DNA from: Puccinia triticina
Taxonomy: Eukaryota > Basidiomycota > Pucciniomycetes > Pucciniales > Pucciniaceae
NCBI RefSeq assembly: GCF_026914185.1
Contig: NC_070569.1
Location: 744,001-808,000 of the forward strand
Length of the DNA: 64,000 bases
Direction of reading: 5' to 3'
This document shows, piece by piece, positions 3,968 through 50,780 of this stretch. Within the stretch, counting starts at the first letter, position 1; the number at the start of each line of letters is the position of its first letter. The notes beneath the pieces are model-generated. The model did not search any database. It saw only the letters and a list, made by a program, of their open reading frames with translations, and had not been told where the DNA came from. Made by a program: the position numbers and the translations under genes.

Positions 3968-4310
3968 CCGGTGATGACCGGTCATCAAGAGGAGGTGTTA
4001 TTAGCCTCGATGACCGGTGTGACCGATTATCGAGGTGTGAGTCCCCTCGATGACCGGTCTGTGCCAATCATCGGGAGGTGTGACCGGTCCGCGCCGGTCA
4101 TCGAGAGGTGTGAGTCCCCTCGGTGACCGGCACAGACCGGTCATTGAGAGGAGATGTTACTCCCCTTGATGACCGGCACAGACCGGTCATCAAGAGGTGT
4201 AATTTCTGTGATTTCCCTCAATGACCGGCGGTCTGGTACACACTGGTCATTGAGAGGAGATGTTAATCCGCTCAATGCCAGTCTGTACCGGTCATGGATA
4301 TCAGGAGGAT
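3968..4310. repeat. Hairpin array of GATGACCGG / CCGGTCATC words
   Basis: About 340 bp made of the word GATGACCGG and its reverse complement CCGGTCATC, each followed or preceded by GAGAGG(A)GTGT / ACTCCCCTC spacers. Adjacent words face each other, so single strands can fold into many short hairpins. The same word set returns at 34680-35170. No coding potential; small frames here are read-through of the repeat. Confidence 0.8.
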
Positions 4311-4337
4311 CAAGTGGGGTGTGTTTGTACATAGCCC

Positions 4338-4650
4338 AGTTGAATTTGTAGGCACTCCAGCTCTGGCTGGAGTGCAGAGTACTGCACTCCCCTTTTGAGG
4401 AGGAGAAATATCAGGAATGGAGTGCTGGGGGAATGCACTCCAATCTGATGGAGTGAGACTCATGGGCACTCATTACATTTCCTGGCCACTGGAGTTCTTT
4501 GTGGTGCACTCCAAAGAGTCTTGAGTCCCCGGTTCTGCACTCCAATTGACTTGGAGTACTCTGGTCTGTACTCCAACAATCACTGGAGTGCACACTCCAT
4601 ACACTCACTTTTGGAGTGCTTTTGGGATTTTTTTGGAGTGCATTTAGGCT
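4338..4650. repeat. Hairpin array of GGAGTGCA / TGCACTCC words
   Basis: A second array immediately follows the first with an unrelated word: GGAGTGC and its complement GCACTCC occur more than a dozen times in both orientations, for example GCACTCCAGC..GCTGGAGTGC at 4352-4375. The organisation matches the previous array although the sequence does not. Spacing between words is irregular (about 15-40 bp). Confidence 0.75.
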
Positions 4651-4829
4651 GACCCAATTACATATCCAACTGCCTTTCTGTATTTTCATTTTTCACTTCC
4701 AACTACCAAAATGCACCCAGGTCAATTTTTGGTCCGCGCAACCCGGGAGCAACATTGGGGAGCATTCCTCCCAACGCGAACCGTGATTGGTAATTGGAAA
4801 TCAAATTTGAGTTAGTCAATTGATTAAGA

Positions 4830-6290: not shown

Positions 6291-7024
6291 TTATTTTTTG
6301 TCAAAGTGTCACTGACTTGCACCCCTCTTGATAAGTTGGGGATGAACATGGCATTCTACTCAAAAAATAATCTGATAAAAGAAGGTGTGTTGGCCTCATG
6401 CAAAACTGGAATTGTTGATGCAAATAAGAGTGGGAAGAAAGAAAAGGTATTTTTGTGGACAAAAATTGATCTATGCCCGCCACAAAAAAACTGGTATTTG
6501 CTTGATTTGATTTTTTTTTATATGTATGCCTGCTGCAATATGATACTAGTTTTCCCGAGTTGAATAGTTCCAATTATATGAAAATGATAAATAAATATTT
6601 AGCATAGTATAAAGAATGTATGTGTGCAGAGTACAATTTAAAAAAAGGCCCTGAAAGTACCTGTGGTACCCGCCTTAAGTACCGCTAGTACCCGCCAGGC
6701 GGTGCTGGGTTCCAGTTTTTTGCAAAAAAATGTGTGGGTACCAGCAGTGCAACCGGTGCCTGGGTCCATCTTGCAGTTCTCTAGAATGGGGAAGGGAGGA
6801 AGGAAAGAGAGAGAGAGAATATAAAGCCCCAATCAAGACACAGTTAGGGTTCTCAAAGTTCAAAACATACAAATTTCAAGCCTTACACCAGGAAAAAAAA
6901 GTAGTCACTTGATGGCAAGTGACATGATGAAGCTTTGTTTTCAGCTCCAACACTGCTCCAGTGCTGCTCCTCTACACCAGCACATCTAGGGCTCACATGA
7001 CAGGTGTCAGGATCAAAGCACTCA
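6291..7024. other. No gene seen; GGTACC-rich patch
   Basis: AT-rich sequence with a short patch of GTACCCGC/GGTACC words at 6660-6765. No convincing reading frame or RNA gene. It leads directly into the 28-bp tandem array. Confidence 0.4.
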
Positions 7025-7690
7025 ATGTGATAAAACCAGATGATGCTCAGCTTTGTACCTGGCACAGCTGATGCTCAGCTTTGGCCCTGGCACAGCTGAT
7101 GCTCAGTGTTGGCCCTGGCACAGCTGATGCTCAGCTTTGGCCCTGGCACAGCTGATGCTCAGCTTTGGCCCTGGCACAGCTGATGCTCAGCTTTGGCCCT
7201 GGCACAGCTGATGCTCAGCTTTGGCCCTGGCACAGCTGATGCTCAGCTTTGGCCCTGGCACAGCTGATGCTCAGCTTTGGTTGGCCGTGGATCAGCTGAT
7301 GCTCAGCTTTGGCTCTAGCCTAGCTGATTTTTAGCTCTGGTTCTGTCCAAGCTGATCCCAATCTTTTTCTCTGGCCTGGATCAGCTGATACTCAGCAAGC
7401 TGAGCATCAGCTGTCCAGCTGGCCCAGGACTGGGTCAAAGCTGAGCATCAGCTGGGACAGGACTAGGAAAAAGCTGAGCAAGGACTGGTACAAAGCTGAG
7501 CATCAGCTGCGCCAGGAGTAGTACAAAGCTGAGCACCACCTGGGAAAGGACTGGTCAAAAGGCTTCATTCCAATTCTGAGAGTGAGCTGCGTGAAAAAGC
7601 TGAGTATGAGCTGGGCAAAAAATCTGAGTATGAGCTGGGTACCAAAGCTGAGTATCAGCTGGACAGAACTGAGGATCAGTTGGGCTCATC
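7025..7690. repeat. 28-bp tandem array followed by inverted degenerate copies
   Basis: From about 7040 to 7270 the unit CAGCTGATGCTCAGCTTTGG + CCCTGGCA (28 bp) repeats about eight times with few changes. From about 7395 the reverse word GCTGAGCATCAGCTG appears in diverged copies to 7690. The switch point lies near 7380-7400 (CTGATACTCAGCAAGCTGAGCATCAG), so the whole block can fold as one long hairpin. No CRISPR-like unique spacers are present. Confidence 0.85.
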
Positions 7691-9080
7691 AAAAACTGAA
7701 CAGGACCTCCTTGGTAGATTTTGGAAGTTGAGGAGATGGTTGGGATATTGGGATAGATAGTGGATAGATATTGGATAGATGGTGGGTAGCTGGCTGGAGC
7801 TGGTGTGATTTCACTTGTCATCAACTGGCTATTTTGTTTTCCTGGTGTTATGGGTTCAAGTTCAATGTTGAAAAACTGATATGGACCAATTTTCTGGGGG
7901 TAGAGAGATGATAGTAGATCACATTACACAAGATTCCATATCAACTTTTTGACCTTTAGTCCAAGAGTATATCATGCTATGATTTTATGTCACCCAACTT
8001 TGAGAACCCTAAGTGTAGCAATCACTTGTGCTTGGTAGGTGAAGAGATAAGTAAACCTAAAATCTTGGTTCTCTATAATCTGGGAATCCTCCTAGTAACA
8101 AGGTCCCCTAGCTTTAAGTGCTTTCCTCACATGCATTCACGCTTGGACAGCTATTCCCAGAAGAGAATATCAATCTCCATTAGGGAATACTAATTGCCCA
8201 ACGGTGCTACTAGTCTCCTCAGGGCTAGTAGGTATTGGGAGCTGTATGTCAGCTCTTTAAGGCAGATTTACAGAGTATGTAAGCAATTTTCCACCCCCTT
8301 GCCCTCTTTAGGGCTCTTGAACAAACTAGTTGTTAGGTAACTCTGTCCGGCTTGCTAGATTTGCCATCAACTGCAGAGCCTCTGTAAGACAATTCTAACG
8401 AGCCTGCCTACTGCCCTTGTTGAAAACCATAAGTCCCCAGCATATGTTGTGGTAAGACCAATCAACCATCAACTACATCAAATCATAGTATATTTTAATA
8501 TTAAAGTACAGTAAAAACTACATACAAAACATAGTTAGTACAAATAACCTCCATATTAAATTTCACTCAGCTGTCACAATTATTTTCACACCCAGAAAAC
8601 TGGTAACATTTCTTTACATAAGTATCAGACATGTAACAAATCTCATAGTAACATTCAAGAATCACCTCTAAGAAATAGCTCATAGATGTATTTTCCATAT
8701 AAGAGCAGATTACAGTAGATACACAGTAGATCTCAGAATATTTTCCACTCTCAGAGTATAATCACATCTGATACACTCTTCTGTGAAAAGAAATTCCTAC
8801 TTAGATAGTAAAATACCAAGCCCTTTTGTATTTCACACAGCTATTCTCATCACATAGTAGAAGAATCTTTCAGCTACATATTTCTAGTCTCAGACAAGTT
8901 TATCTACTATATAAGGAGGCCTCTTCTGACCCTTCCTGTTGTCTTCTTTCCCCATGTTTGCACTTGATAGTAATATTGTAGATTACTAGCACTCATCACT
9001 TGATATAAATAGTTGAATTATAATATTTTGAAATATTAATTGATATATATAACTTGCCCCTTTGACATAGATAAATTTCA
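7691..9080. other. AT-rich region without recognised genes
   Basis: Short frames only. TGTTATGGGTTCAAG at 7847 resembles the TGTTATG LTR start seen elsewhere in the window but no matching end was found. I see no RNA gene or conserved domain. Confidence 0.4.
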
Positions 9081-13860: not shown

Positions 13861-14041
13861 TATGGTGTTCAAAGTTGGTTTGCATAATTTTATGCATGCA
13901 TAAATCATAAAATCATACAAATATTTTGGTGAGGAAATTTTGTATTACATAATCAGACAGTCATATCCCCTGCAAAAAAGATTTTATGATTTTATGATTT
14001 ATGCAGGCATAAAATTATGCAAACCACCTTTGAACACCATA
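13861..14041. mobile_element. Stowaway-like MITE, 181 bp with TA duplication
   Basis: TA at 13861-13862 and 14040-14041 flank an element starting TGGTGTTCAAAGTTGGTTTG and ending with the inverse (CAAACCACCTTTGAACACCA). The terminal inverted repeats run about 55 bp each (about 13863-13917 and 13981-14039) with only a few mismatches, leaving about 60 bp of unique centre. TA target duplication, small size and no coding capacity fit a Tc1/mariner-type MITE. Confidence 0.8.
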
Positions 14042-15534: not shown

Positions 15535-16949
15535 GCTTGGGTCTTGATTTGTGTCCTAATATAAGCGAAAGAATCCGATCTGCCGGCTGTCAGGGTGTGT
15601 TCAAGTCAGGACTGGTGGTCAACAGTAGAACGGTCTAGAAAACAGTGATAGATGGAATATATTCGTGCGAGAAATAATGGGAGGAGCGCAGATAATGCGC
15701 AAGAAAGGTGGGAGGTTGGTTGCTGATTGGTCGAGTTTTGTGAGTGGAATGGAAACGATAATCAGCCACGAATACAAGGCCGGTACCGCCAGGACGGTGC
15801 GGTGCTTTACAGTGACTAATACGCAATAACTAATGGACCCTACCACCGGCTGTACATAAGTGTCAGGTCTCCGACCCTGCAAACGGAGAAGGCTGACGAG
15901 CGTCTCTCTTCTTTTTCTCTTCTTTGTCGTCATTTCTTCGTGGGCCCGTGGATGTGTGTGGTCGACCCTAGCCAAAAGGGAGGACCCCGGGGCACTAAAG
16001 AGCTAACTTTAAAATTAAGTCCCTTCTAGAGAGCAGGGACCAGAGCACATGTTATGCCCCGTCTCCGGAATCTCTGCGCAAAGATCTCCGGAAGTGCTGG
16101 AGTCCGGGCCGGCGGCCGATGAAGCCACCAACATCTTGACACCTCGGCCATTCATATTTGTTCTCAAGTGGTTAAATTTTCTGGGGTTGATATGTGTTGA
16201 TGACTTGGCTTAATCTTGATGGATACAAGGCTCATACGGTTGGGCCACACAAGCGTTGCCATCAAACTGTGCATCGGGACCGACAAGAGCCGGGCAAGAG
16301 CTTGCGCGGAAGGGCGAGATGAGCAGCCGGCAACTGCGCACTTTCACAGCCCAGGCCACACGCGTGGGCGCGAATGCCAAGCAGACAGTTGCAGACAACA
16401 CTCACCGCCTCCGGGATCGTCTTCCTCAGAGACATACATAGTCATGGAGAGCAATGATCCGGCTGAGATCATTTGCACCCCCTCCCCCTCCCCCCTCTTG
16501 AAATGTACTCATTATATCTGCATTTCTTTTGGGTAGAACGATCGGATGAAGGTAAGATATCTATTTAAATACACAGACGGATACGAGAGAATGGTAACAG
16601 AGCAGATACCCGTGTGTTTTTTGGTACGTTTTGGTCGGAGTGGGGCGCATGTATATGAGTGTTTGGCGAGGATGATAAGGAGACATCACAGAGGAGACGA
16701 GGAAGGCTGTTGTCAAGCGGGACAGCGCCGTTGTCCTCAGAAATGCCAAGGGTTGATCGGCAGAGGCCGGGCGATACTCGTCTTGTCGACGATGGGCGTC
16801 TCATTGGGACGCACTTATGAGCGGCGGGTCGGTGTGGACGCCGGACAGGCGGTCAAGCCGTGGCATCAAGTGCGTATGTGTGTGTGTTTTTTTGGCAAGG
16901 GGTAAGGGGGGCCAGAGGGATGGCGCACGGGTCGCCGACGAAGGACGTC
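15535..16949. other. Upstream region of secreted protein A
   Basis: The promoter of the secreted-protein gene lies just above 15534. A plus frame at 16316-16441 (MSSRQLRTFTAQATRVGANA) has plausible composition but no clear splice partner or stop context, so I leave it uncalled. The right edge is the 3' flank of the RS-rich gene. Confidence 0.35.
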
Positions 16950-18525
16950 CTAATGGCGGCCACTGTTGGGGTCACGGAGATGAGGACGGGGGACGGCGGC
17001 AGGAGCCGGGGGATCGCCCAGTTTCTGCTTCTTGCGAGAGGGGAGGGCGGAGTCGAGGCGGTCGAGGGGGCGGGTTCTGGATGGACCCGGCCCGGGCCCA
17101 GGGCCCGAGGAAGAGGATGTGGTGGGCAGGGGCAGCCGGATGAGACTGATAGCGGCATGGTTTGGCGAGTGCGGGCGGTCGAGATGCGCCGCAAGCACCG
17201 CCGAGATCGTCCCCGAAGTAGGCTTCTGGACCGGCGGGTTTGGATGTGCATGGGCAGGCAGAGACTGCGAGGAAGTCGGCGCGGGGGGCTTGGCGGGCCG
17301 GTTGGCGCGGGAAGAGCTCAGCTGGGCGTCGGCGTCGAGGATCTCGGTGATGAACGCCCGGGTCGGGTCTTCTAATGGCTTGATCGGTTGTTGCTTATGA
17401 TGCGCTTTGGGCTGGCTGACGAGTTCGACGGGGCGGGTGAGGCCAAGACCTAAGAGGACGGCGGCGGCCTCGACGGTTTCTTGTTCGGCATCGACCGGCA
17501 GGACTTTGTGGGTCGCTTCTTGGAAGTCGGGAGGCGGCTTGGGCTCGTCCAGAGTGGAGCGGTCGCTAGCGATTGAGAACCTGCGACTGTTGTGGGCACA
17601 GGAGGCATCGACGGACTCGAGGCTGCGCTGGAAGTACTCCTCGGTCGAGTCTCTCCTCCGCAGCCCGCCGCCGACGGCTTTGCGGGGGCCGAGGACGGTG
17701 GAGTGGGCGAAGTACAAGTCGCGCTCGCGTTTGCGGCGTTCGTAGGCCTCGAGCTCGACGTAGTATCGGGCCATCTCGTCGCGGTATCTGCGCTGCTCCT
17801 CGGCGGCCCGCTCCTCCGTCCAGGGCCCCTCCGAGTCCTCGTCCTCGTCCTCGTCTTCCTGAGAGCAGCCGGGTTCCACGAGATCCGGCGGGCGGCTCGA
17901 CCGTCTGGATCGCGACCGATGGCGCCGCGAGGAGGGCTCCGGGGACGACCGTCTGGAGCGCGCCCGGCGGGGATCGTCGTCGTCCGTCGAGCGCTGCCGG
18001 CGCCGCTCGCCAGTGGGTCTGTGGGAGCGGGACCTGCGCAGGGGCGAGGGCGCTCTCGAGCGGTGGTCCCGGCCGCGATGGTGGTCGGCGGGGTCGAGGG
18101 GCTTGGGCTCCGGGGCGGGCGCCTGTCTGAGGGGCGGCTGCTCAGAAGACAGGGACAGCCGTTTCTTCAGCCGAGGGTCCCGAATGGCAGGCTCTTGCGG
18201 AGGGCCCGGGCTGGGCTTCACGGAGGGGTCGGCCATCTCGGCTGGGAGCACCGGCGGGGGCATGCCGCGGCGGGCATCGGCTGGCGGCGGCGGTGCTGGG
18301 GGCCGTTCGGCGGGCGCTGGGCCCCGGGCGAACGGGGCTTGCGGATGGCGCCGTGGGTTTTCCTGCGGAGGGGGATGGTCAGTATGGAGTTATGTGGTTA
18401 GGGCGAGCACCGGGACGGCTTACTGGGGGGTGTTCGGATGGGAGGGTGGTCTCCGGCAGCGTTTTCCGGAGTTCGAGGGTGAGCTGTCGGAGTTTGCGGA
18501 GGTCTTCGTCGAGCTGCTGCTCCAT
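16950..18525 (-). CDS. RS-rich, proline-rich nuclear-type protein, 504 aa
   Basis: Two exons: 18525-18424 (34 codons, MEQQLDEDLRKLRQLTLELR, a heptad-like helix) and 18362-16950, joined across a 61-nt GTAAGC..CCGCAG intron in phase 0; stop TAG at 16952-16950. Layout: N-terminal helix; proline-rich linker; Arg/Ser-rich domain at about residues 100-195 (RRSRSHRPTGERRRQRS, RRHRSRSRRSSRPP); acidic run SQEDEDEDEDSEGPW; a charged helix (EEQRRYRDEMARYYVELEAY); then a Pro/Ser-rich tail with GPGPGPGP and a basic SRKKQKLGD patch that could be a nuclear signal. The RS and acidic blocks suggest a pre-mRNA processing or chromatin role, but I recognise no RRM or other fold. GC-rich codons contrast with the AT-rich TE flanks, and the long frames on the opposite strand are shadows of this gene. 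Confidence 0.72.
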
Positions 18526-20470
18526 CGCTACCCACCAGGCCACCCACGCTGACCAGCACTCACTTTTATCGCAAGAGGGGCTGTGACAGGTGGAAAGCTG
18601 TGAATCTTGGATACTACACCGCTTTCCAAGCTTGGTTCTGATTGATTGTGCACTGTGATATCCATCCAAACTTACAGATCTACCCAGATCTGCAGCCTCT
18701 GGGACAGCATGTCTCGCAAAAATTTAGGTTTGCTGGCTGCAGATCTGGTCCTACAGGGAGCTGTAGATTGACAGGAAGTCCTCCACTCAAGAGAGGATGT
18801 GATGTGAAAACCAAAGAAAACAGGTTGAACAACAAGATTGTAACTATCAAGTCCAAAGATTTACAAGATATTAAATGAATAGAAGTTTTACAAGCATCAC
18901 AACGACACAGTGAGAAGAGGAAAAGTGGACAAAGTGAAATATCAGGGTATCATTGACCAAGCCTTGGAAGAGGCCGCGGAATCAAAGCCCAAGCAAGCTA
19001 AAATTAAAGCCTCCAGCAACCCTTCAAGTAGCAAGACAAAGGAACAAGGCAACTAGAATTTTCTTTTTTTTATCTTTTTACACAGTTTTATCTTCCCCTC
19101 CCCCCCAATTTGTTGCTTGGTATCCCCCGCTGTGTACCAGATTTGTTTTTATCCCCCTGTCAGCTCCTTTCTGAGAAATGCAAAGGACAATCCCCCATAT
19201 ACAGGATTGGTATAGGATTGGAAATCCAATCCTATACCATGGAAATCCAATCCTATACATGATTTCTGTGTTTCATTTATTTGGTAACCAATACCTTGGA
19301 TTGGGATCAATTGAATTGTCTGCGCAATGCAATCCACAGCTTAAAAAATATCATGTATTGAGCATCCAATACAATCCAATGTATATGCACATACAATAAA
19401 TAAATTGTATTGGTTGCACCGTTGCTGGAACTCATTGAAAACTGATTTGAAACTGATCCTGGATTAATCCATAAATTATGCAGAATTCATACAGAATTCA
19501 TCTGGAACTCAACTGGAACTCAGTTCAAACTACTAAGACAAAATGGCCACAGTCCAATCATTGTTCCATTTGAAATGTTTGTTGATTGAGATGATTTCTT
19601 GGGGTTCAATTCATGTTATTTACATGCTCATGAAGGTGGTAATTGTTTTCAATTTGCTAATGTCACCCTCATGTACATGCGTAAAGGGGGTGAAAAATCA
19701 CTATTTGGACCTCCCATAGACAACACTGGATCAATACAATTAAATACAATATTGGAGCTAATTTTGTATCAAATCAATCTCCATTACCTAGTTATGCTGT
19801 TACAGTTAGCAGTAACAAGGTTTTCTGCAACCAGCCTCTATTGTACCAAGGATGATTATTTTGTATTTCTCATTTTGGGTACCGCAACACGCCATATTGC
19901 TCTGTAATGTTGCATAGCGCCCTGTAACATGCCATAATGCCCTGTAGCCAGTTTTATCCCTGCATTTCATGTATGTGCAGTTGCGGTAGTCATCCGTTGA
20001 CTCAAACTTTTGGGAGGTCCCAATTGGGGAGCCTGGATTTTTCCAAAAAAATATTAGGGGCCCCAAGGCCGGGGCCACAGGTGGTCAGGGTTAGCTGGAC
20101 GTCAACCTTTGGAGAGAATAATGTGAGGAAGTGAAGTTCAGCTTTCTTCTGTAGAGCCTATCAGATAAAGATGGCCTTGGGTGAAGCATCATCAGCTCAG
20201 CGGAAGAGGAGACAAGATGAGAAACCACCAACACAGCCAAAGAAACTATCCAAGAAAGCAAAGCCACTTCTGAAACCTGCGCAACAAAAGAAATCAACAA
20301 TAACAACCACATCTATTGGCAAATCTCAGTTTATTGGGAAGGATATGACGGTCCACAATCAGCCATTCTTATGAAGTGATACGAATCACACCAATGCATC
20401 CCTCGGAATGCAGCATTGAGAGTTGACATGATTCTAAACTTGTTTCCTTTATCTTTTTCCCATCATCTCA
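18526..20470. other. Upstream region with short palindromes
   Basis: Contains a GGAAGTCCTCCA end at 18775-18790 (fold-back family, see 41584) with GATCTACCCAGATCTGCAG words at 18676-18760, and a tight palindrome TATAGGATTGG..CCAATCCTATA at 19207-19236 repeated once to 19257. No gene called; the frame at 20171-20374 (Lys-rich, QRKRRQDEKPPTQPKKLSKK) is short and unsupported. Confidence 0.4.
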
Positions 20471-20723
20471 ACTCACTGCAAAAAAAACTTGGTCAACTGC
20501 TTGCAGTTGACATGCAGGATACACAAGCCAAGCTGCCATTTTAACTCCACCTGAATGCAGAAGTTTCTTTGTTGGCACAGTCACTGTGCAAGGTGCACAG
20601 TGACTGTGCATTAAAGCTTGGGTTGATTCAAACCTTGAGTAAGGCTGGTGTAACACCACAAGCTTCCTCAGAGTTACCGCATGTCAACTGCTCACAGTTG
20701 ACACAGTTTTTTTTGCAGTGACT
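20471..20723. mobile_element. CACTA-like MITE, 247 bp, ACT duplication
   Basis: Terminal inverted repeats CACTGCAAAAAAAACTTGGT (20474 on) and its inverse ending GCAGTG at 20720, extending about 40 bp with the inner palindrome GTCAACTG..CAGTTGAC. The 3-bp direct repeat ACT at 20471-20473 and 20721-20723 fits the 3-bp target duplication of the CACTA/EnSpm superfamily, and CACTG is an accepted terminus. No transposase inside. Confidence 0.78.
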
Positions 20724-20989
20724 TCCATCAATCTCAGGCTTGATTGAGACCCAAGCGGCTTCCTGGCTTTGGTCATCCTAGTCTCCAAACTAATTTATGT
20801 ACATAGATGTGCTTATGAAACATAAAAATATGGCTTTATAAAATGTTTGAACCCCATAGAATATACAAATTCCATACATATGGGCTTACAGTATGTATGT
20901 GTGCCCAGGTCCCAATCGAGGGGACCCATAAAAATGAAGCTTTTTTTGGGCTGGAGCAATCACAAAGCAAAGATAGATTTAAAATTTAC

Positions 20990-21974: not shown

Positions 21975-22447
21975 AGCATATGCCAACAGTGGGCCACTAA
22001 GCTAAACTACACTATTTTAGCCCTAACTTTTAGTGTAGTGGCAAAAAGCGCTGGCCTTTTTTGAATAGTGTTAGCGCCGCTACGCTACGCTAATTTTCAG
22101 CAGCGCTAACAGCAGGCCAATTTTTGTTTAGCATTGGCGCTACACTACAGCCGCTACGTTGCGCTAAGGCACTTTGAGCGGAAAAAAGCCCTTTTTTGCC
22201 TCAAAAAGCGCTGTAGCGCAGCGTAGCGAACGCTCTTTTGCGCCCTGTGTGCTTAGCGTTAGCGCCATTGCGCAAATCTGCGCTAACGCTACGCTGAAAG
22301 CTAAAATAGCTTTGCACCCTCTGCGCGTAGCGGCAGCGCAGATGCGCGCAATTGCGCTAACACTACGCTAAAATATTGTGCATTTGCGCTGCGCTACGCT
22401 ACACTAACAGCTATGGTTAGCGTAGCTGACCCACTGTTGCATATGCT
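21975..22447. mobile_element. Fold-back MITE packed with GCGTAGCG / CGCTACGC words
   Basis: Termini AGCATATGCCAACAGTGGG (21975) and CCCACTGTTGCATATGCT (to 22447) are inverted copies, with TCTTT directly repeated outside (21970-21974, 22448-22452). The inside is nearly all GCGCTA, GCGTAGCG and CGCTACGC words in both orientations. The duplication is low complexity, so its length (5 bp) is tentative. Small frames inside are by-products. Confidence 0.7.
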
Positions 22448-24013: not shown

Positions 24014-24176
24014 ATCATATTTTATGGAGTTTCACAGCTGTGTGATGGATATGTTGCAACTGTTGAGCCACACCATGTTGCCAATGTTCCAATCTGGGGT
24101 GTCCCTCAGGCCTTTTCAAATTGGGTCTTCATGGCCGTCTGCGCCTCCTCTAGTCTTGCGGTCAGCTCCTTCTAAA

Positions 24177-30024: not shown

Positions 30025-30045
30025 AAAATTCCCAAGGGTGATTTG

Positions 30046-32895: not shown

Positions 32896-32933
32896 TTCTC
32901 AGGACCAGACTTCAAAATTCAATCCATCCGCTG

Positions 32934-33620
32934 TCAGCACGATGTCGGTAGGAATGTTGGAAGTGGCAGCGTGGACTGCCTGGCCGACAATTTTTGACTC
33001 CTTGAGTTGCGCTTTGGCTTCGGCCAGGTCAGTGGCTTGTTGCGCTGCGGAGAGGTGAGGTGGTCGGTCCATAACAAAAGAGGGCGGAGGTGGATGATTT
33101 GGGGATGGGGGAGATGGGGGAACTTCAAGATTGGGGAAAGAATGCTCGTCGGAAGGTACCGGCGAGGCAAAGGACGGAGGAGGGGGGGTGGAGGTGGAGG
33201 CGCGGGAGGGGGGAAAATTGGTTTTCGGAAGGTTGATCTTGGGAGGGGGGCGTAGTGCCGTTCGGTCAGAGCTGTTGTTGGTTCGGCTGCCGTTGATGAC
33301 GGAAGAGGAGGAAGTTGGGGATAGTATTGGTTACCGGGAGTTGCTGGTCTTGCTTGTTGCCACGCTCCTGGTATTCGCTGATTGATAGCTGTGGTATTGC
33401 CTGGAGACTGTGTCAATGGCGCAGCGGGACGAGAGTTGAGATCAAGATTCTGTCCGAAGATTTGATCAAGACGCTGTGGTGTGTCCTGAATTGAGGCCGC
33501 TACTGCGTCGATTAATTCTTGGCCGCTGAGTTCCGCGATCGATCGACCAGACCAGGCTGATGAGGAGGAAGTTCGACGTTGAGGTCCAGAAGGTGGTTCC
33601 GTCGGACCGGGATTGAACAT
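32934..33620 (-). pseudogene. Copia gag N-terminal part with frameshift (element 1)
   Basis: Begins MFNPGPTEPPSGPQ at 33620 with a Ser/Pro-rich N-terminus (SAWSGRSIAELSGQELIDAV). It runs into a proline-rich stretch, after which the natural gag text (FVMDRPPHLSAAQQATDLAE, NIPTDIVLTADGLNFEVW) is found in another minus frame at about 33070-32905. A single frameshift therefore lies within the PPPPPP-coding C/T tract near 33190-33090. The shifted reading continues to a stop at 32934. The 5' untranslated leader of the element spans 33621-34107. Confidence 0.75.
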
Positions 33621-34067
33621 AAAAGGGAAAAAGGAAGAAAAAAAAGAAGGATCAACCGAGTCAAAGCAGGAAATCTGTGACTGCCTGTTCGAGCTCCTGA
33701 GTTCTCCGGAAAGGAAAAGAAGAGTAGATTTCGGATTATCAAGGTTGCGTCTAGGCCCTGCACCGTGCCAGGGAGCAGTTTCACAGTTTTGGCGTACTGT
33801 TTAGCCTTATCACAACGTGCTCGATTTTCCTAGTCAGGTAGGGTAGTGGGGTGGGCGGGGAAGAACTCAGAGTCTCAAACAAACAGACACAAACCTTTGC
33901 TCGACCCTGAAGATCCAACGAAGAAACTTGAAGATAAATTTTGGAAAAAAGATTTGGGTTGATTACTCCCTACGCTGGGATACCCAAGATAATCGAAGTT
34001 TGAGGATTGTAGAGAGAGGAAAAAGCGGGTCGATTACGCTTGACTCAAAGCTACCCTGTTAGAGAAA

Positions 34068-34237: not shown

Positions 34238-34242
34238 GTATT

Positions 34243-34357: not shown

Positions 34358-34380
34358 TATAGTTTAACGCCGGCCACTCC

Positions 34381-35338
34381 TAAGAGCATCTCTAACGGAG
34401 CCGCGACTGGGCGTTCGGGGGCGAACTTTGGCCGCCCGGGTTCCTGTTTTGCGCGCTAACGGACCCGCTGAACGACCCTGGGAACATCGCCGGGGGCAGT
34501 CCAACCCGCGATCACCTGCTGACTTCTGCGGGTCGCCTCCCGGCCGCAATCGACCACACACACCTGCATCCGCTCGTCTTCATACCTCGCAAAGATGGAC
34601 GACACAGTATCAACACTTGCAGCTCACCAAGGAAGAAACAAAAAACTTCATCAATTGAATCAACGAGCCTCGTCTTGATAACGGGGTCTTTTCCGGTCAT
34701 CGAGAGGAGTAAACACTCCCCTTGATGACCGGTTCTCTCTGATCATTGAGAGGAGTAAACACTCCCCTCATTGACCGGTTCTCTCTGATGGTCAAGAGGA
34801 GTAAACACTCCCCTCGATGACCGGTACTCTCCGGTCATCGAGAGGAGTAAACATGACCGGAACGGGCCCAGTCATCGAGGGGAGTGATGACCGGTTCTCT
34901 CCGGTCATCAAGGGGGTGTTCACTCCCCTCGATGACTGGGTCCGTTCCGGTCATCGAGAGGAGTAAACACTCCTCGATGACTGGTTCCGTTCGGTTCATC
35001 GAGAGGAGTAAACACTCCCCTCGATGACCGGGTCCGTTCTGGTCATCAAGAGCAGTGTTTCCTCCACTTGATGACCGGGTTTGCTCCGGTCACCGAGATA
35101 CATGCGTCCCGACGACCAGAACGTTCCAGTCATCGATATGTGTGCATCCTGATGACCGGAATCAGGCTTGCAGAGGGTGGTGGGTGCTGGTGGGTGGCGC
35201 TGGAGGAGTGAGCTTTCAGTCGGATTGCGGCTTAAACCGCCAGTCCATAATTGGCGCTGAGCCGCAACTGCTGTGAAATGTGTCTGCGGGCCGGGGAACA
35301 CAGGCCAACTGCCCCCCGGACCGTTGGAGATGCTCTAA
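34381..35338. mobile_element. Fold-back element with GATGACCGG hairpin array
   Basis: Outer inverted repeats TAAGAGCATCTCTAACGG (34381) and CCGTTGGAGATGCTCTAA (to 35338) enclose a dense array (34690-35165) of ATGACCGG / CCGGTCAT words with GAGAGGAGTAAACACTCCCC spacers. The array is homologous to 3968-4310. No transposase. No target duplication could be fixed. Frames inside are repeat by-products. Confidence 0.72.
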
Positions 35339-37160: not shown

Positions 37161-37167
37161 GGGCCAA

Positions 37168-38100
37168 CCAAAAGCATTTCTAGAGATGGGCGCTTCGCAT
37201 CCGGGTACCCGCGCGTGTTCGGATACCCGCAGCCAATTTTAGCCATTTCCTGGCATCCGCATCCGCATCCGCATCCGACAGCGGGTACCCGCGTGCCTGG
37301 GCGGATACCCGCCCCTCAAAACGTGCTTACCGGTTGACTGCTGCATATGTCAGTCAACCGGGAGGCACTTCTCCCTGCCGACTGCTCCATATGGCTGTTG
37401 ACCGGGAGGGATGCCTCCCGGTTGGCTGCTTGATATGGCTGTTGACCAGGATGGACGCCTCCTGGTCAACTGCTCGATATATGACTTTTGACCGGGAGGG
37501 ATTCCTCCCGGTTGACTGGTGTGTATAGTTGTCGACCGGGAGGGATTCCTCCCGGTTGACTGGTATGTCTAGTTGTCAACTGGGAGGGATTTCTCCCGGT
37601 CAACTGCTCAATACATATGCCTGTTGAGTTGACTGGGAAGGACTCATCCCGGTTGACAACTAGACATACCTGTTGACTGGGAGGGATTCCTCCCGGTTGA
37701 CTGGTGTGTATAGTCATTGACCGGGAGGGATTCCTCCCGGTTGACTGGTATGTCTAGTTGTCAACCGGGAGGGATTTCTCCTGGTCAACTGCTCAATACA
37801 TATGCCTGTTGACCGGGAAGGACTCATCCCGGTCGACTACTTTATGTTGCTGTCGACCGGGAGCGACTCCCCCTGATCAACAGCAACATAGAACGGCTTT
37901 ATGGCTGCCAACCGCCGCAGTTCCCATACCCTAGGGAGAGCGGGTACCCGCCGGAAGACACGGGTACCCGCTGGATTCTGCCGGAATCTCAGACATCCGC
38001 ATCTGCTGGCGGGTACCCGCTGGAGGCCCTTGGGTACCCGCCAGCGGATAGCGGATACCTGCAACGGGTTCCGTGCGCCCATCTCTAAGCATTTTGGTGG
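37168..38100. mobile_element. Fold-back element with GGGTACCCGC and TTGACCGGGAGG arrays
   Basis: Outer inverted repeats AAAGCATTTCTAGAGATGGGC (37168) and GCCCATCTCTAAGCATTTT (to about 38096). Inside these are GCGGGTACCCGC palindromes on both flanks (37200-37310 and 37945-38060) and a central array (37330-37880) of GTTGACCGGGAGG / CCTCCCGGTTGAC words about 55-60 bp apart. The three layers are nested symmetrically. No coding capacity. Confidence 0.78.
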
Positions 38101-41583: not shown

Positions 41584-41729
41584 GGAGGACTTCCCGTCAA
41601 TCTGGGAACCCAGATTTTTCCAGATTTTGCGGGGAAATCTGGGCTCGATCTTCCCAAATCCTAGATCTTCCCAGATTTCCCTGCGAAATCTGGGAAAATC
41701 TGGGTTTCCAGATCGGCAGGAAGTCCTCC
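41584..41729. mobile_element. 146-bp fold-back element, GGAGGACTTCC family
   Basis: Terminal inverted repeats GGAGGACTTCCCGTCAATCTG and its inverse ending GGAAGTCCTCC, with inner CCCAGATTT / AAATCTGGG words. A near-identical 146-bp copy lies at 50569-50714, differing at only a handful of positions. Non-coding. Confidence 0.8.
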
Positions 41730-44167: not shown

Positions 44168-45765
44168 TTTACGTCGCGCGGACCGCCTCTGGACGTCCGT
44201 CCCCGGTCCGCGGGACTAAAGTTTGACCCGCACGCATTTTGGGAGTTGGAAAATTAATTCTACTCTCCAGAATGGGAGTCGGAATTTTAATTTCACAAAA
44301 AATGACAGAAAATAAAGAAAAATTTATACCTCTGCACTGGGGCATCTGAAGCCCCCCAAAATTTTACAGCGGCCATAAAGCACTCTGAATAACACATGAT
44401 GAGCCTCACGGCATTGGCGCACCCCAGGAAAGGGGTGTGCTACTGTGGGTCTAATTTGGCTGATTTCCTTAGGAGGAAATCCACCAAAGCCTTAGCTACA
44501 GTGCCCCAAAGCCCCCCAAAATTTTACAGTGGGAATAGTAGCCTCTGAATGGCACATGGGGAAATTCTTTGCAGTATTAAACCCCAGGAAAGGGGTGTGC
44601 TACCGTGGGTCTAATTTGGCAGATTTCCTACTAAGGAAATCCGCCAAAGCCTTTGCCACAGTGCCCCAAATTGCACCAAACTTTTGGATCATGAAATAAA
44701 ATACTCTGTAACCAAATGTTTAGCTGCAAGACAGTAACACACCAGCCTAAAATAATTTTGAGGCAGCAGGGGCTTTTGGTTATATCTGCTACTAATTGCC
44801 TCTGCAACAGATAATAGTGCCTCCGCAACAGTTGATAGCGCCTCCGCAAGAGTTAATAGTGCCCCCGCCACATTTAATAGTGCCTCCGCCACAGTTAATA
44901 GTGCCTCTGCCACTGTTAATAGTGCCTCCGCCACAGTTATGTTGCGGAAGCATTATTAACTGTGGCAGACGCACTGTTGATTGTGCCAGGCACAAACTTT
45001 GAAAGAGGCACTATTAACTATGGAGGAGGCACTATTAACTGTGGCGGAGGCACTATTAAATGTGGCGGGGGCACTATTAACTCTTGCAGAGGCGCTATCA
45101 ACTGTTGCGGAGGCACTATTATCTGTTGCGGAGGCAATTAGTAGCAGATATAACCAAAAGCCCCTGCTGCCTCAAAATTATTTTATGCTGGTGTGTTACT
45201 GTCTTGCAGCTAAACATTTGGTTACAGAGTATTTTATTTCATGATCCAAAAGTTTGGTGCAATTTGGGGCACTGTGGCAAAGGCCTTGGCGGATTTCTTT
45301 AGTAGGAAATCCGCCAAATTAGACCCACAGTAGCACACCCCTTTCCTGGGGTTTAATACTGCCAGAAATTTCACCATGTGCAATTCAGAGGCTATTATGC
45401 CCACTGTAAAATTTTGGGGGGCTTTGAGGCACTGTAGCTAAGGCTTTGGCGGATTTCCTACCAAGGAAATCCGCCAAATTAGACCCACAGTAGCACACCC
45501 CTTTCCTGGGGTGCGCCAATTCCGTGAGGCTCATCAGGTGTTATTCAGAGTGCTTTATGGCCTCTGTAAAATTTTGGGGGGCTTTAGATGCCCCAGTGCA
45601 GAGGTATGAATTTTTCTTTATTTTCTGTCATTTTTTGTGAAATTAAAATTCCGACTCCCATTCTGGAGAGTAGAATTAATTTTCCGACTCCCAAATTGCG
45701 CGCGGGTCAAACTTTGGTCCCGCGGACCGGGGACGGACGTCCAGAGGCGGTCCGCGCGACGTAAA
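44168..45765. mobile_element. 1.6-kb near-perfect palindrome (fold-back element)
   Basis: The left arm starting TTTACGTCGCGCGGACCGCC and the right arm ending with its inverse at 45765 match for roughly 780 bp each with about 3% differences on reading. Each arm contains a 160-bp internal direct repeat (CCCCCCAAAATTTTACAG ... GTGGGTCTAATTTGGC, at 44350 and 44512). The centre (44808-45136) is an array of ACTGTGGCGGAGGCACTATT words, about 21 bp per unit, reversing direction near 44950. The arms are non-coding; frames on both strands mirror each other because of the palindrome. No clear target duplication (flanks AATAAC and CAACTT). Confidence 0.88.
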
Positions 45766-46837
45766 CAACTTTTGGGAGTCAATTAATTAATTCATGGGAG
45801 TCAATTTTTCAACTCCCTATAGATATTACCTGTTAACATAGGCCTTGCTCTTGCCCTTCTCCTCACTAATTTGAGGAATCATCCTTCACCAACTTCTACC
45901 AAAAATTAGTGATCTCTGGCCTCTGCCTGGTCCTTACTCCATCCCTGAATCCCATTGCTGCACAGTTTACTCAATTAAAATATAGAGATCATCAGGATCT
46001 ACACTCTAGATCCTCAGCATTACAGTCTACTCCCTTGTAGTCTCACTTATCTCATCTCACTATGAAATCTTACCCATAGCTTGTTGTCTTAGAATCAATA
46101 ATCACTAGATCCCTTCCCTCCAACAACACTGAAACCATTATGCTACATGTAAGTTAAACTTGTTATAGTGTAGTGTAATTGCACACTAATACAAAAATGT
46201 CAAAATGTGCGTACTGCATTTCTAAGCAAATAGGGGGGTTCACAATTAAATTTTAATAAACTTTGGATGCAAATTTAAGGCCTTTATGAACAAAATTTTA
46301 AAATTTTGGGAAAATGCACAGTAGCAGGTGATACAGATGAGTCAGTGCAACTTATCAATTTTTTTGAAAAATGTTCATAAACAGTGAACACCTTAAAATA
46401 TGTCCCAAAGTTTTGCAAATTTCAATTGTGGACCCCCCTAATGTGTACCAATGCAAATGATTGGCAAACACATTGATTTTGCCAATACAATCACTGTGGC
46501 ACAGAGGGCAATCAATACACTACACTACAGTATTATTTGTATTTTCTCTTTTAATTAGCTTATTGTGCTTTATTTACTCAATACTCAATTTAACACCAAT
46601 ACATAAAAATGTAACAGCAGTACAATATAATTATGCTACATGCCACTACAAATACAGGTAATGTAATGGTCTCAGCATTGCCTCCAAGTCTGAAAAAGTC
46701 TCATTATGGAGATCAAAGGATGTTATTTTGGTTGTTTGCCATGTTTAGAATGCAAATGATTTTTTTATATACCACTCTGCCTGCGGAGAGAGGGGAATCA
46801 TTCAAGTGGGGCCAATGTGGACCATGTGTCAAAGCAT
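45766..46837. other. AT-rich, no gene recognised
   Basis: Right flank repeats GGGAGTCAATT words near 45774-45810 that resemble GGGAGTCGGAA inside the palindrome. Otherwise AT-rich with short frames only. Confidence 0.4.
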
Positions 46838-47287
46838 AAGGAAATATGCCAAATTTGTGCACTTGGTTCAATTAAAGATGTGTTTTGAGTCTGAATTAGC
46901 TAATTCTCTCCTTGGGGGAGCGAAGCAACCTCCAAAGGAGGGACTTACGCCCTATGTGAACCCTGCGGCCTGAGAGAATTATGACTTTTGGTGGGGACTT
47001 TTTTAGAATCACTCTCCCTCATGAGCCTCTGCACCATTTTTGAAATTGTTTACATTTCTGGGATGGCCCAAGCTGTCCCTATCTTTCTACTATTTTTTCC
47101 CATCCTCAACACCTCTTGTTGAGCTGTAATCAGAGTTGTAACATCATGGATTCCAGATTCTGTACAGTGCAACATGTGTGATACGGGATATAGCCAACTA
47201 AATGAAGTTGCAAAAAAAGACATTTGAATGTCATTACATATCCCTGAAAATAGGCGGAAAGATTCTCCTTGATGTTCTGCATCTTTT
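46838..47287 (+). repeat. 450-bp repeat, copy 1 of an inverted pair
   Basis: Starts AAGGAAATATGCCAAATTTG and ends GTTCTGCATCTTTT. The reverse complement recurs at 49489-49937 with very few differences. It contains the AGTCCCTCC / GGAGGGACT words found in several fold-back sequences of the window. Non-coding. Confidence 0.88.
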
Positions 47288-47969
47288 GTTCCCCTACAAC
47301 TCAATCACATAATGTGATGTGATGATGCTACGCAGGATTGGAAAAGGCCAAGTTCCTGATTTTCTCAGGCTGCGGGGTCCACTTAGTGTATAAGTCCCTC
47401 CTTTGGAGGGTCCCTGTGGGATGGTGTCCCCCCTCCACAAAGAGAGGGACTTAGTTAAGTTAGGTTTTGAGTCACAAAACAATATCATCAGTTGCATGAT
47501 TTTTCATGACACACAAAAAAAATTCATCATAGTATTTTCAAGTTACAGAACAATTACATAGTGCCTTTAAGATTTCCATCTGCAACGTCTTTTGTGTTGG
47601 CTCTAGGTCCATTTAATCTCTCTCTTGTGATTTGTATTCTTCTCATTATTATCAGCCTGTGTTTTTTTTCAGGTTCACATATCTGCTTGCAGTTTTTTTT
47701 GAGTCAAGTGGCTGTGTCCTAACATCTGTGGTCTGGAACTTGAAACCAAAGTTCAGAAATACAAATATCTGATTGCCTTTATTTGATTTTCAAGTCTTAC
47801 TCATTCTGTCCCAACATCTTTTGTGTTGAATCTAGGATTGCATACAAACCAGAGAGCTTTTGTTCTTACATGGCAATGGTGTTCTCTGCAATAAAGTAGA
47901 AAACATGAAAAAATGTTCTAATGTTGGTGCAATAATAGAGGCTTCACAATATAATTTTTCTAACCAACT
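47288..47969. other. No gene recognised
   Basis: Has an imperfect hairpin AAGTCCCTCCTTTGGAGGG..GAGAGGGACTTA at 47391-47455. Otherwise AT-rich without supported features. Confidence 0.4.
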
Positions 47970-48170
47970 TGTTATGAGCCATAGCACGGGCTCCGCAGCG
48001 CAGACTCACATTACATAGACTACACATACATGTCACGGACCATACTCAAGGTTTGAGAGGCTGGAGATCCAAGCCTCTTCCTCATCCTGCAATCTACCAT
48101 CTTCAATCCAGAACCCCCAGAACCCCAGACCCCAGATTCCATCTTCCTCTCCCCAGAACAGACCATAACA
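47970..48170. repeat. Solo LTR, 201 bp (TGTTATG..CATAACA)
   Basis: TGTTATGAGCCATAG at 47970 and GACCATAACA at 48170 give 7-bp inverted termini. Flanks CAACT and CAATT are a 4-of-5 target duplication. The start matches the LTRs at 21534 and 23288 (minus). No internal region adjoins, so it is likely left by LTR-LTR recombination. Confidence 0.8.
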
Positions 48171-48936
48171 CAATTGTAAGGCCCTCATGAACAGATCAGC
48201 TTCTTAATTGTTTACAAGGTTGTTGTTTGATGGCTTAAAATGGGCATTAAAATTCTGAAAATTTTGGTTGTGAAACTATCAGACCATAAATGACAATACC
48301 TGTCACTGCTGAAAACCTGCTACTTCAGCATTACTTTACCACTGCCGTTGGTAAATTAACCACATTTCATTGTTAGGAGGGGAGCTGTTTATGTTTTCCC
48401 CAGCCTCTGAAATGGATTGTGTTAGGCTAGCCTCCAAGCAGGGTCTTGTGGACCCTCCATTGGTTCAAGTATCAAGTTCAATGCATAGGTTCTCACTAAG
48501 TTGACCAAGTCCCTCTGTAATTGGAGGGCAGATACCATCCCGCAGACAACCTGTAAAAGAGGGACTTTGAATTGAACCCCACAGCCTGATGGATAGGATT
48601 AGATATTTTGCATGGGGCTTTTTTAGTACATACAAGCCTCATTTATTTTCCATCCCTGAGTGGATTGTTTATTGTTTGGGTCCAAGCCTCCCCCATCCAT
48701 CACCAGTGCTTTGTAAGATTGTGAGTTTTGGATTCTGCAAAGTGCAGAATGATAGACTTCCTAGCATGTTGATCTGGAAACCCAGATTTTCCCAGAGTTT
48801 GCAGGGAAATCTAGGCAGGTCTAGGATTTGGGAGAATTAAGCCCAGATTGGAGGACTTCCTGTCAATCTGGGAACCCCTTCCAGACCCAGATCTGAGCCA
48901 AACTTCGCAGGGAAATTTAGGCTTTGAGACTCTGGG
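48171..48936. other. Fold-back family debris
   Basis: 48771-48905 contains GATCTGGAAACCCAGATTTT and GGAGGACTTCCTGTCAATCTG, partial copies of the 41584 family. A GGGACTT hairpin sits at 48508-48570. No gene. Confidence 0.5.
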
Positions 48937-50146
48937 ATAGAGTTGGGCCAAACGAACCCATTGCGGGTACCTGCCAGCGGGTGCAGGTGCGGGTGCGGGT
49001 GTCTGAGATTCTGGGTGAAATCCTGTGGATACTTGGGTATTTAAAGCCACACCCGCCCACCCCTTTGACCCAAAGGCCGGATCACTTCCAGTTTCCGAGG
49101 TTGTTCACCCCTGGCAGCTAGGAAAACCGACCTGGTCGCCGAGGTTATACAACCTCTTTGACCAGTAGGGATTCCTCCCGATCGCCGGGCTGTATCTTGG
49201 CGACCAGCAAGAAAAAACCCTCTCTGGTCGCTGAGGTTGAAAAAGCTTTGCGGCCAGAAGGAAATCATCCTGGTCGCAAAGGCTATACAACCTCGGCGAC
49301 CAAGAGGGTTAGCAATCCTTGGCACGCGGTCAGAAGGATCCTGGTCGCAGAGTGGCGACCATCTGCTGGCAGATCAGGTTATACCAACCCGGTGACCAGA
49401 AGGGAACCCCTGGTTGCCAAGGATTTATAGACTCAGGTCGTACAACCTCGACGACCAGGACCTTTTTTTATGCTCGCCAAGGTAAATAAAAGATGCAGAA
49501 CATCAAGGAGAATCTTTCCACCTATTTTCAGGGATTTGTAATGACATTCAAATGTCTTTTTTTGCAACTTCATCTAGTTGGCTATATCCCGTATCACACA
49601 TGTTGCACTGTACAGAATCTGGAATCCATGATGTTACAACTCTGATTACAGCTCAACAAGAGGTGTTGAGGATGGGAAAAAATAGTAGAAAGATAGGGAC
49701 AGCTTGGGCCATCCCAGAAATGTAAACAATTTCAAAAATGGTGCAGAGGCTCATGAGGGAGAGTGATTCTAAAAAAGTCCCCACCAAAAGTCATAATTCT
49801 CTCAGGCCGCAGGGTTCACATAGGGTGTAAGTCCCTCCTTCGGAGGTTGCTTTGCTCCCCCAAGGAGAGAATTAGCCAAGTCAGACTCAAAACACATCTT
49901 TAATTGAACCAAGTGCACAAATTTGGCATATTTCCTTCCAGGAGGCTGCCTCTGGTGGCCAAGATCTTTGACCTTCCAGCGGCCAAGGTGATTGTTATTG
50001 GCGGGTATCTGTGCGGGTACCCGCTTTGGAAGGCGGGTACCCGCCAGCGGATGCGGTTGCGGGTGCGGATGTCTGCTCCAAGCTAAAAGTGGTCGCGGGT
50101 ACCCGCACCCGCGCGGGTACCCGGGATCAAATTGCCCATCTCTACT
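48937..50146. mobile_element. Fold-back element with GGGTACCCGC and CTGGTCGCCGAGG arrays, interrupted
   Basis: GATAGAGTTGGGCCAAA (48937) and GGCCCATCTCTAC-like GCCCATCTCTACTC (to 50146) are inverted edges related to those of 37168-38100. GGGTACCTGCCAGCGGGTGC words at 48964-49010 and GCGGGTACCCGCCAGCGG at 50033-50120 form the second layer. The centre (49125-49460) is an array of CTGGTCGCCGAGG / CCTCGGCGACCAG. The 450-bp repeat (49489-49937) sits inside its right half, probably as a later insertion. Confidence 0.68.
49489..49937 (-). repeat. 450-bp repeat, copy 2 of an inverted pair
   Basis: Reverse complement of 46838-47287; both ends (AAAAGATGCAGAACA and ATATTTCCTT) coincide with those of the first copy. 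Centre-to-centre distance is about 2.65 kb. Its sharp edges against unrelated flanks indicate a transposed unit. Confidence 0.88.
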
Positions 50147-50780
50147 CTGGGAGGAACTCATATTGCTCCCAGATTGCAACCGGTCAATCTGGAAACTCAG
50201 ATTTTTCCAGATTTCACAGGGAAATGGAGGACTGGAGGACTTCTTGTCAATTTCAAATAGATCTGGAATTTCAGATTTTGTAGGGAAATCTGAACTTTGG
50301 AACTCTGGATCACTTCGGGGATCTTTGGGGACCCAGATTTCCCTGCAAAATCTGGAATATGGACACTCAGATCTGACTTTCCAGATTGGCAGGAAGTCCT
50401 CCACTTTCCCGTCGCAATCTGGGAGCAATCTGAGAGCCTCCCAGAGTCTCAAAGCCTAAATTTCCCTGAAAAATTTTGCTCAGATCTGGGTCTGGAAGGG
50501 GTTCCCAGATTGAGGGGAAGTCCTCCAATCTGGGCTCAATCATACCAAATGCTATATCTGCCTAGATTGGAGGACTTCCTGTCAATCTGGGAACCCAGAT
50601 TTTTCCAGATTTTGCGGGGAAATCTGGGCTTGATCTTCCCAAATCCTAGATCTTCCCAGATTTCCCTGCAAAATCTGGGAAAATCTGGGTTTCCAGATCG
50701 GTGGGAAGTCCTCCATTTCCCTGCGAAATCTGGGAAAACCGGGGTTTCCAGATTGGCAAGAAGTCCTCCACCTACAAAAT
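50147..50780. repeat. Cluster of GGAGGACTTCC / AAATCTGGG fold-back copies
   Basis: At least four ends of the family (GGAGGACTTC at 50232, GGAAGTCCTCC at 50391, 50516 and 50761) with CCAGATTT words in between. The intact 146-bp copy is 50569-50714, almost identical to 41584-41729. Tandem and nested insertions of one family explain the cluster. Confidence 0.78.

What the first reader, a model, noticed from the sequence alone, without database searches (positions are those of the whole stretch)
3968..50780. A recurring architecture: 'word / anti-word' hairpin arrays with unrelated sequences
At least eight loci consist of a short word and its reverse complement repeated many times: GATGACCGG (3968-4310, 34690-35165), GGAGTGC (4338-4650), GCTGATGCTCAGC (7025-7690), GCGTAGCG (21975-22447), TTGACCGGGAGG (37330-37880), GTGGCGGAGGCACTATTA (44808-45136), CTGGTCGCCGAGG (49125-49460), CCCAGATTT (41584, 50569). 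Several are bounded by longer inverted repeats. Words differ but layout is constant, as if one process turns different seeds into hairpin arrays. Transcripts would be highly double-stranded. A defined class of fold-back element or an sRNA-generating system is inference.
Basis: partly seen in the sequence, partly recalled or inferred. Interest (0 to 1): 0.8.

Follow-up and report, generated by a model that had tools for sequence, protein, structure and literature searches.

The report
Hairpin repeat arrays inside DNA transposons
The odd 'word and reverse-word' repeat arrays are parts of several unrelated families of short, non-coding jumping genes in what looks like a rust-fungus genome; most of this follows known designs, but one hairpin repeat is shared by jumping genes whose ends are unrelated.

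Summary
The arrays are real and far beyond chance. They are not one class of element. Each lies in a dispersed, multicopy DNA transposon with its own terminal inverted repeat (TIR) and target-site duplication (TSD): A+B together (GGGTCAGCC, 8-bp TSD in 6 of 6 complete copies), A2 (GAGCATCTC, TAA/TTA, Harbinger-like), C (CACCAGG, 3 bp, CACTA-like), D (CAACAGTGGG, 7 bp in 8 of 8), E and G (TAGAGWTGGGC, 8 bp, hAT-like), F (771-bp arms, 9-bp TSD in 1 of 2 copies, Mutator-like), H (about 146-bp MITE). Layout varies: C and F are head-to-head blocks, D is irregular, the rest largely alternate. In the A+B element, word B occurs 10 and 13 times in the two ends and never in the 1288-bp middle, like known transposase-binding subterminal repeats. 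The middle array gains and loses stretches while the ends stay 99% identical. Unusual: the A hairpin word also fills A2, whose ends are unrelated. Small RNAs could not be tested, and no transposase was tied to any of the arrays. Verdict: a new variant of known fold-back and subterminal-repeat transposons.

The parts
3967..4655 (-). One-ended copy of the AB transposon: part of the middle hairpin array (A, 3967-about 4310) and one subterminal word array (B, about 4338-4655) ending in the TIR at 4647-4655; the other end is lost at 3967
   Evidence: Homology to 7 other copies stops at 3967 and about 4655; complete copies L002, L003, L004, L006, L007, L008 have TIR GGGTCAGCCTAAATGCACTCCA and perfect 8-bp TSDs, 6 of 6
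4338..4655 (.). Subterminal array of GGAGTGC/GCACTCC (B), irregular spacing, both orientations
   Evidence: Counts; in L002 the word is confined to both ends; query B found 40 of 40 scored copies at 98-99% besides itself or including itself
6886..7847 (.). CACTA-like element C: head-to-head blocks of GCTGATGCTCAGC, TIR CACCAGG...CCTGGTG, TSD TTA
   Evidence: Copies and ends; 3-bp TSD in 4 of 4 both-ended copies, a fifth lacks the right end; word number 17 here, 19 and 26 in two other copies
21984..22439 (.). MITE D with GCGTAGCG-type words, TIR CAACAGTGGG, TSD CATATGC
   Evidence: 7-bp TSD in 8 of 8 loci read, this one included; 988 first-look candidates, 40 scored
34384..35335 (.). Harbinger-like element A2: the same hairpin word as A, TIR GAGCATCTCTAACGG / CCGTTGGAGATGCTC, TSD TAA
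   Evidence: TSD TAA here, TTA in L081; three further loci lack one end. Array matches A at E=3e-14 (window A) and 2e-21 (L002 middle)
37181..38087 (.). hAT-like element E: TTGACCGGGAGG-type hairpin array, TIR TAGAGATGGGC / GCCCATCTCTA, six GGGTACCCGC near the ends
   Evidence: 8-bp TSD perfect in 4 and 7 of 8 in 2 (this copy included) of 6 loci read at both ends
41584..41729 (.). H, a palindromic MITE with CCCAGATTT words, TIR GGAGGACTTCC
   Evidence: 3-bp TSD ATT/AAT in 5 of 6 loci; this copy is the exception (ATT/ACT)
44168..45817 (.). Mutator-like fold-back element F: 771-bp arms 95% complementary, inner block array; left terminus lost in this copy
   Evidence: 9-bp TSD TAATAATAA in one (L030) of two both-ended loci
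48938..50144 (.). hAT-like element G: CTGGTCGCCGAGG-type alternating array, TIR TAGAGTTGGGC / GCCCATCTCTA, perfect TSD CTCTGGGA; interrupted by a separate repeat at 49480-49937
   Evidence: ends 77% identical to E over 133 bp, E=2e-18; the TIR motif was not found in 11 other G loci
50569..50714 (.). Second H copy, in a cluster of H-type sequence (48771-50780) into which G has inserted

Best explanation
The arrays are cis-acting and internal parts of non-coding TIR DNA transposons of several superfamilies. Words packed near both ends (B; probably D; the GGGTACCCGC copies of E) are most likely multiple binding sites for each family's own transposase or accessory protein, supplied in trans; this would explain why words differ by family while the arrangement recurs. 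Arrays in the middle (A, A2, E, G, C, F) are hairpin satellites that lengthen and shorten, most likely by slippage, template switching or fold-back repair at breaks, which palindromic units favour. Shown: element boundaries, TSDs, word placement, length change of the middle array. Inferred: protein binding, supply in trans, and the repair mechanism.
For: Dispersed copies for each of nine array queries. TIRs with TSDs: AB 6 of 6, D 8 of 8, E 6 of 6 at 7-8 of 8 bases, C 4 of 4, H 5 of 6, A2 2 of 2. B word exact 10 and 13 times in the two ends of L002 and 0 in the 1288-bp middle, against 0.04, 0.03 and 0.28 in base shuffles; 10-13 per end and 0 in the middle in 6 of 6 complete copies; the word is part of the TIR. 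Over 15 pairs of copies: ends 99.2% and 99.1% identical with 1.1 and 0.0 gap events, middle 98.0% with 3.7 gap events and 220 gap bases. Exact AB TIR 290 times in the genome, reversed control 0. Precedents seen in print: Spm/En TNPA sites (PMC2613891, passages), Herves (PMC3143072, passages), Galileo (PMC3688188, passages).
Against: No transposase was tied to any of these TIRs, so superfamily names rest on TIR and TSD alone. F's 9-bp TSD holds in 1 of 2 loci and lies in AT-rich sequence. G's ends were read in the window copy only. The order of B words is itself largely alternating (11 of 14), so B and A differ by place and spacing more than by orientation. Aligned bases of the middle array are nearly as conserved (98.0%) as the ends. 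No binding data.
Confidence: 0.7

Rival explanations
1. The arrays are neutral minisatellites that grew inside transposons and have no role in movement.
For: Middle arrays change length between otherwise near-identical copies; C has 17, 19 and 26 words in three copies.
Against: Word B is confined to both ends of AB and is part of its TIR, with the two ends otherwise little alike. Inverted pairs are 0.46-1.64 times as many as direct ones, unlike a one-orientation tandem satellite.
Confidence: 0.3
2. A hairpin satellite (A word) is a module that passes between transposons with unrelated ends, by nesting, recombination or repair.
For: A and A2 arrays match at E=2e-21 while AB ends and A2 flanks have no match at E 0.01. 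Weaker matches in L092 (7e-8), the L081 flank (2e-6) and the L006 flank (2e-4). A is part of AB: 4 of 5 copies fetched through query B carry it; in the fifth (L096) the TIR was not recognised and it was dropped.
Against: E-values between repetitive arrays are inflated by self-similarity. Nested insertion followed by joint movement was not excluded. A versus E or G is not significant (0.83, 0.54) and neither is A2 versus E or G (0.09, 0.21).
Confidence: 0.2
3. The arrays are sources of double-stranded or small RNA.
For: Strong predicted folds: z -11.3 (A), -5.5 (B), -6.5 (D), -16.3 (E), 0 of 200 shuffles as good. In a related rust sRNAs map to class II repeats (PMC8444563, passages).
Against: Folding follows from the repeats and says nothing about transcription. 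No RNA data here; one Rfam match in the window, a tRNA (gathering threshold).
Confidence: 0.1

Closest known systems
hAT elements with subterminal transposase-binding motifs (Herves; Ac and Tag1 recalled)
   Same: 8-bp TSD, short motif repeated near both ends; passages on Herves in PMC3143072
   Different: No transposase linked; E and G also carry a large inner hairpin array; motif sequences differ
CACTA (Spm/En) subterminal repeats
   Same: Family-specific short repeats near the ends, bound by TNPA, differing widely between families (PMC2613891, passages); element C has a 3-bp TSD
   Different: C begins CACCAGG, not CACTA, and its words form two opposed blocks in the middle
Foldback and Galileo elements
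   Same: Long internally repetitive inverted arms; [quoted passage not shown] compare C and F
   Different: No P/THAP transposase sought; TSDs here are 3 bp (C) and 9 bp (F, one locus); Galileo TSD is recalled as 7 bp
Tetris fold-back element of Drosophila virilis
   Same: Internal tandem repeats of a fold-back transposon that feed satellite arrays (PMC4079207, abstract)
   Different: Repeat unit about 220 bp, one family; here about 20-46 bp hairpin units in several families
CMITE elements of corals
   Same: Interior more conserved between families than the TIRs (PMC2872659, abstract and discussion), as for A and A2
   Different: CMITEs stay within piggyBac-like ends; AB and A2 differ in TSD length

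Membership tests
hAT superfamily (E, G) | 8-bp TSD | tested here: met
   E: 4 perfect and 2 at 7 of 8 bases in 6 loci read at both ends of 8; G: perfect in the window copy only
hAT superfamily (E, G) | TIR of hAT type | tested here: met
   TAGAGATGGGC resembles TAGGGTTGAGAATTGGGCC, the TIR of an element in L092 with hAT dimerisation, RNase-H-like and BED domains and a perfect 8-bp TSD; resemblance only
hAT superfamily (E, G) | Encodes or is moved by a hAT transposase | tested here: inconclusive
   hAT domains are frequent in the genome (993 candidates; 150 of 150 scored over cut-off), but none was found between E or G ends
hAT superfamily (AB) | 8-bp TSD and hAT transposase | tested here: inconclusive
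   8-bp TSD 6 of 6; no transposase found; other superfamilies also make 8-bp TSDs (recalled)
PIF/Harbinger (A2) | 3-bp TWA TSD with matching TIR | tested here: met
   TAA and TTA in 2 of 2 both-ended loci of 5
PIF/Harbinger (A2) | Harbinger transposase | not tested
   No search made
CACTA (C) | 3-bp TSD | tested here: met
   TTA, GAT, TTA, ATT in 4 of 4 both-ended loci of 5
CACTA (C) | TIR beginning CACTA/CACTG | tested here: not met
   TIR begins CACCAGG; hence only 'CACTA-like'
Mutator-like (F) | 9-bp TSD with long TIR | tested here: inconclusive
   771-bp arms; 9-bp TSD in 1 of 2 both-ended loci
P superfamily (D) | 7- or 8-bp TSD and P/THAP transposase | tested here: inconclusive
   7-bp TSD in 8 of 8; transposase not sought
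Foldback class (C, F) | Long inverted arms made of tandem repeats | tested here: met
   Order strings +++++++++++------ and ------++++++
sRNA-generating locus | sRNA or dsRNA maps to the array | not testable with these tools
   No RNA data held

The most novel reading that the evidence does not exclude
One hairpin satellite (CCGGTCATCGAG/CTCGATGACCGG) is a transferable module: it fills DNA transposons with unrelated ends (AB with 8-bp TSDs, A2 with TWA TSDs), has diverged forms in other elements, and may spread because a shared protein binds it or because fold-back repair copies it between elements. Words would then be passengers that change chassis.
Probability: 0.2. Interest if true: 0.65.

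Novelty: new variant of a known kind. Interest (0 to 1): 0.42.

Why it matters
It replaces a possible new RNA class with a testable anatomy: families of non-coding transposons, each with its own word. That gives a natural experiment on how transposase-binding sites and their proteins diverge, and on how palindromic satellites arise and turn over inside transposons. The sharing of one hairpin word by elements with unrelated ends raises the question of how internal satellites move between superfamilies.

Tried and rejected
One common class: rejected, because TIRs and TSD lengths differ.

E arrays as an end of an autonomous hAT element: two E copies lie about 1-3 kb from hAT domains, but in L092 the hAT gene sits between its own TIRs and the E-like copy has its own ends, and in L091 the E-like copy starts with its own TIR next to a hAT fragment. 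With about 1000 hAT candidates in 123 Mb such neighbours are expected by chance (my estimate).

Long spans between AB TIRs (10-13 kb, 5 of 39 pairs) as autonomous elements: the one stretch opened (4.5 kb) held a reverse transcriptase domain; not conclusive.

A common ancestor of all words: A versus E and G, and A2 versus E and G, are not significant; E versus G is weak, E=9e-6.

The inverted pair 46838-47295 / 49480-49937 as boundary of array G: rejected, it is a separate high-copy repeat of about 400 bp.

A breakpoint shared by the window copy (3967) and L093 was noticed and left as coincidence, since the neighbouring units differ. A first comparison of AB ends mixed orientations and gave about 94% identity; it was replaced.

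Full report
Setting. The window is G000:C12:744001-808000 of an unnamed 122.8-Mb genome in 18 contigs. Size and number fit Puccinia triticina haplotypes, given as 121.6-123.9 Mb in 18 chromosomes (PMC8957140 and PMC10627818, passages); the identification is an inference. In rusts TIR transposons make up 10.2-28.1% of the genome and include hAT, CACTA, MuDR and PIF-Harbinger (PMC12210899, abstract and passages).

Observation. In 10 of 10 intervals reverse-complement 8-mer pairs exceed the maximum of 200 dinucleotide shuffles. Exact words are few for E, F and G, which are degenerate.

What they are. Every array query returned dispersed copies; each search scored 40 candidates, so counts are lower bounds (first-look candidates: A 1162, B 264, C 815, D 988, E 295, F 733, G 69, A2 1131, H 405). 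Query G matched other copies over about its first half only, at 76-81%. Homology ends and flanks gave a TIR and TSD for each family. AB: GGGTCAGCCTAAATGCACTCCA, 8 bp, 6 of 6 complete copies. D: CAACAGTGGG, 7 bp, 8 of 8. E: TAGAGATGGGC, 8 bp, perfect in 4 and 7 of 8 bases in 2 of the 6 loci read at both ends; 2 of 8 loci were not. G: same type of end with perfect CTCTGGGA in the window copy; a motif search in 11 other G loci found no such end. C: CACCAGG, 3 bp, 4 of 4 both-ended, a fifth lacks the right end. A2: GAGCATCTCTAACGG, TAA or TTA, 2 of 2 both-ended, 3 others lack an end. F: GGGAGTTGAAAAAT outside 771-bp arms, 9-bp TSD in 1 of 2 both-ended loci. H: GGAGGACTTCC, ATT or AAT in 5 of 6. 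TSDs other than those of AB were read by eye. Superfamily names are recalled rules on TIR and TSD, not proofs.

Layouts. From the order strings: A alternates at 10 of 11 neighbours, G 11/11, B 11/14, E 14/18, A2 11/16, D 5/13; C and F switch once, as two opposed blocks. Tandem Repeats Finder reports A, A2, C, E and F as tandem arrays but not B, D or G. So layout is neither constant nor cleanly split by orientation.

The AB element. In L002 (2058 bp) GGAGTGC or its complement occurs, exactly, 10 times in the first 400 bp, 13 in the last 350 and 0 in the 1288 bp between; 200 base shuffles give means of 0.04, 0.03 and 0.28. The ends share a perfect 24-bp TIR that contains the word; beyond it similarity is patchy. 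In 6 of 6 complete copies there are 10-13 words per end and 0 in the middle. The middle is array A, 35-57 words per copy. Over 15 pairs the ends are 99.2% and 99.1% identical with 1.1 and 0.0 gap events, the middle 98.0% with 3.7 gap events and 220 gap bases: stretches of the array come and go while the ends are kept. The TIR occurs 153 + 137 times exactly, reversed control 0; among the 100 of 290 sites listed, 39 neighbouring +/- pairs lie within 20 kb, 29 of them 3 kb or less apart. The window copy is one-ended.

Mechanism. Family-specific words packed near both ends match known binding regions: TNPA sites of Spm/En, which differ widely between families (PMC2613891, passages); a subterminal motif bound by the hAT transposase Herves (PMC3143072, passages); [quoted passage not shown] I take B, probably D, and the GGGTACCCGC copies of E (six) as such sites; this is inference. 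Inner arrays are best seen as hairpin satellites that turn over by slippage or fold-back repair; this too is inference. Short templated inverted duplications at breaks are reported for yeast (PMC11724301, start of abstract in the listing), and satellite arrays born inside a fold-back transposon for Tetris (PMC4079207, abstract).

What is unusual. The A word fills AB and also A2, an element with Harbinger-like ends: the L002 middle and the A2 array match at E=2e-21 (window A against A2, 3e-14), while AB ends and A2 flanks show no match at E 0.01. Self-similar arrays inflate such E-values. Weaker relatives lie in L092 beside GGGTACCCG copies (7e-8), in the L081 flank (2e-6) and in the L006 flank, where a visibly similar array GGTCATTGAGAGC / GATGACTGG surrounds an AB insertion (best local match 2e-4). 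Query B, which does not contain A, led to five further copies; four (L093, L094, L095, L097) carry A, the fifth (L096) was dropped because its TIR was not recognised. E and G share ends (77% over 133 bp, E=2e-18) but have weakly related words (9e-6), so inner words can change while the ends stay. Coral CMITEs also share an interior across different TIRs, within piggyBac-like ends (PMC2872659, abstract and discussion).

RNA. Stretches of 300 nt from A, B, D and E fold better than 200 of 200 shuffles, as repeats of this kind must. In a related rust sRNAs map to class II repeats among others (PMC8444563, passages). No RNA data were available for these loci.

Literature. Seven searches listed no paper that, by title or start of abstract, describes these arrays in rusts; several listings were cut, and only open-licence PMC papers are held.

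Noticed in passing
28438-33800 (-) and 51734-56578 (+): Two copia-type retroelements in several open frames (RVT_2, integrase core and related domains).
   Followed up: no
46838-47295 and 49480-49937: A 458-bp inverted pair, 98% complementary, is a separate high-copy repeat; the right copy interrupts element G.
   Followed up: partly
13861-14041 and 20470-20724: Two further palindromic, MITE-like hairpins (67-nt and 46-nt arms) not in the finding.
   Followed up: partly
41584-41729 and 48771-50780: The H MITE occurs in local clusters here and elsewhere (C5:6537707-6539722, C2:5896174-5896763), as if it inserts near itself.
   Followed up: no
L092 2343-5639: A hAT element with TIR TAGGGTTGAGAATTGGGCC, perfect 8-bp TSD ACTAGGAC and hAT and BED domains, inserted in sequence with A-type words and GGGTACCCG copies.
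   Followed up: partly
G000:C4:4523500-4528000 (L098): A 10-13 kb distance between paired AB TIRs recurs (5 of 39 pairs); the one stretch opened has a reverse transcriptase domain.
   Followed up: partly
23943-24014 (+): A tRNA gene, the only Rfam match in the window at the gathering threshold.
   Followed up: no
16001-18000 and 60001-62000: GC rises to 61% and 66% against about 47% elsewhere; a 479-aa open frame at 16953-18389 (-) has no Pfam match.
   Followed up: no
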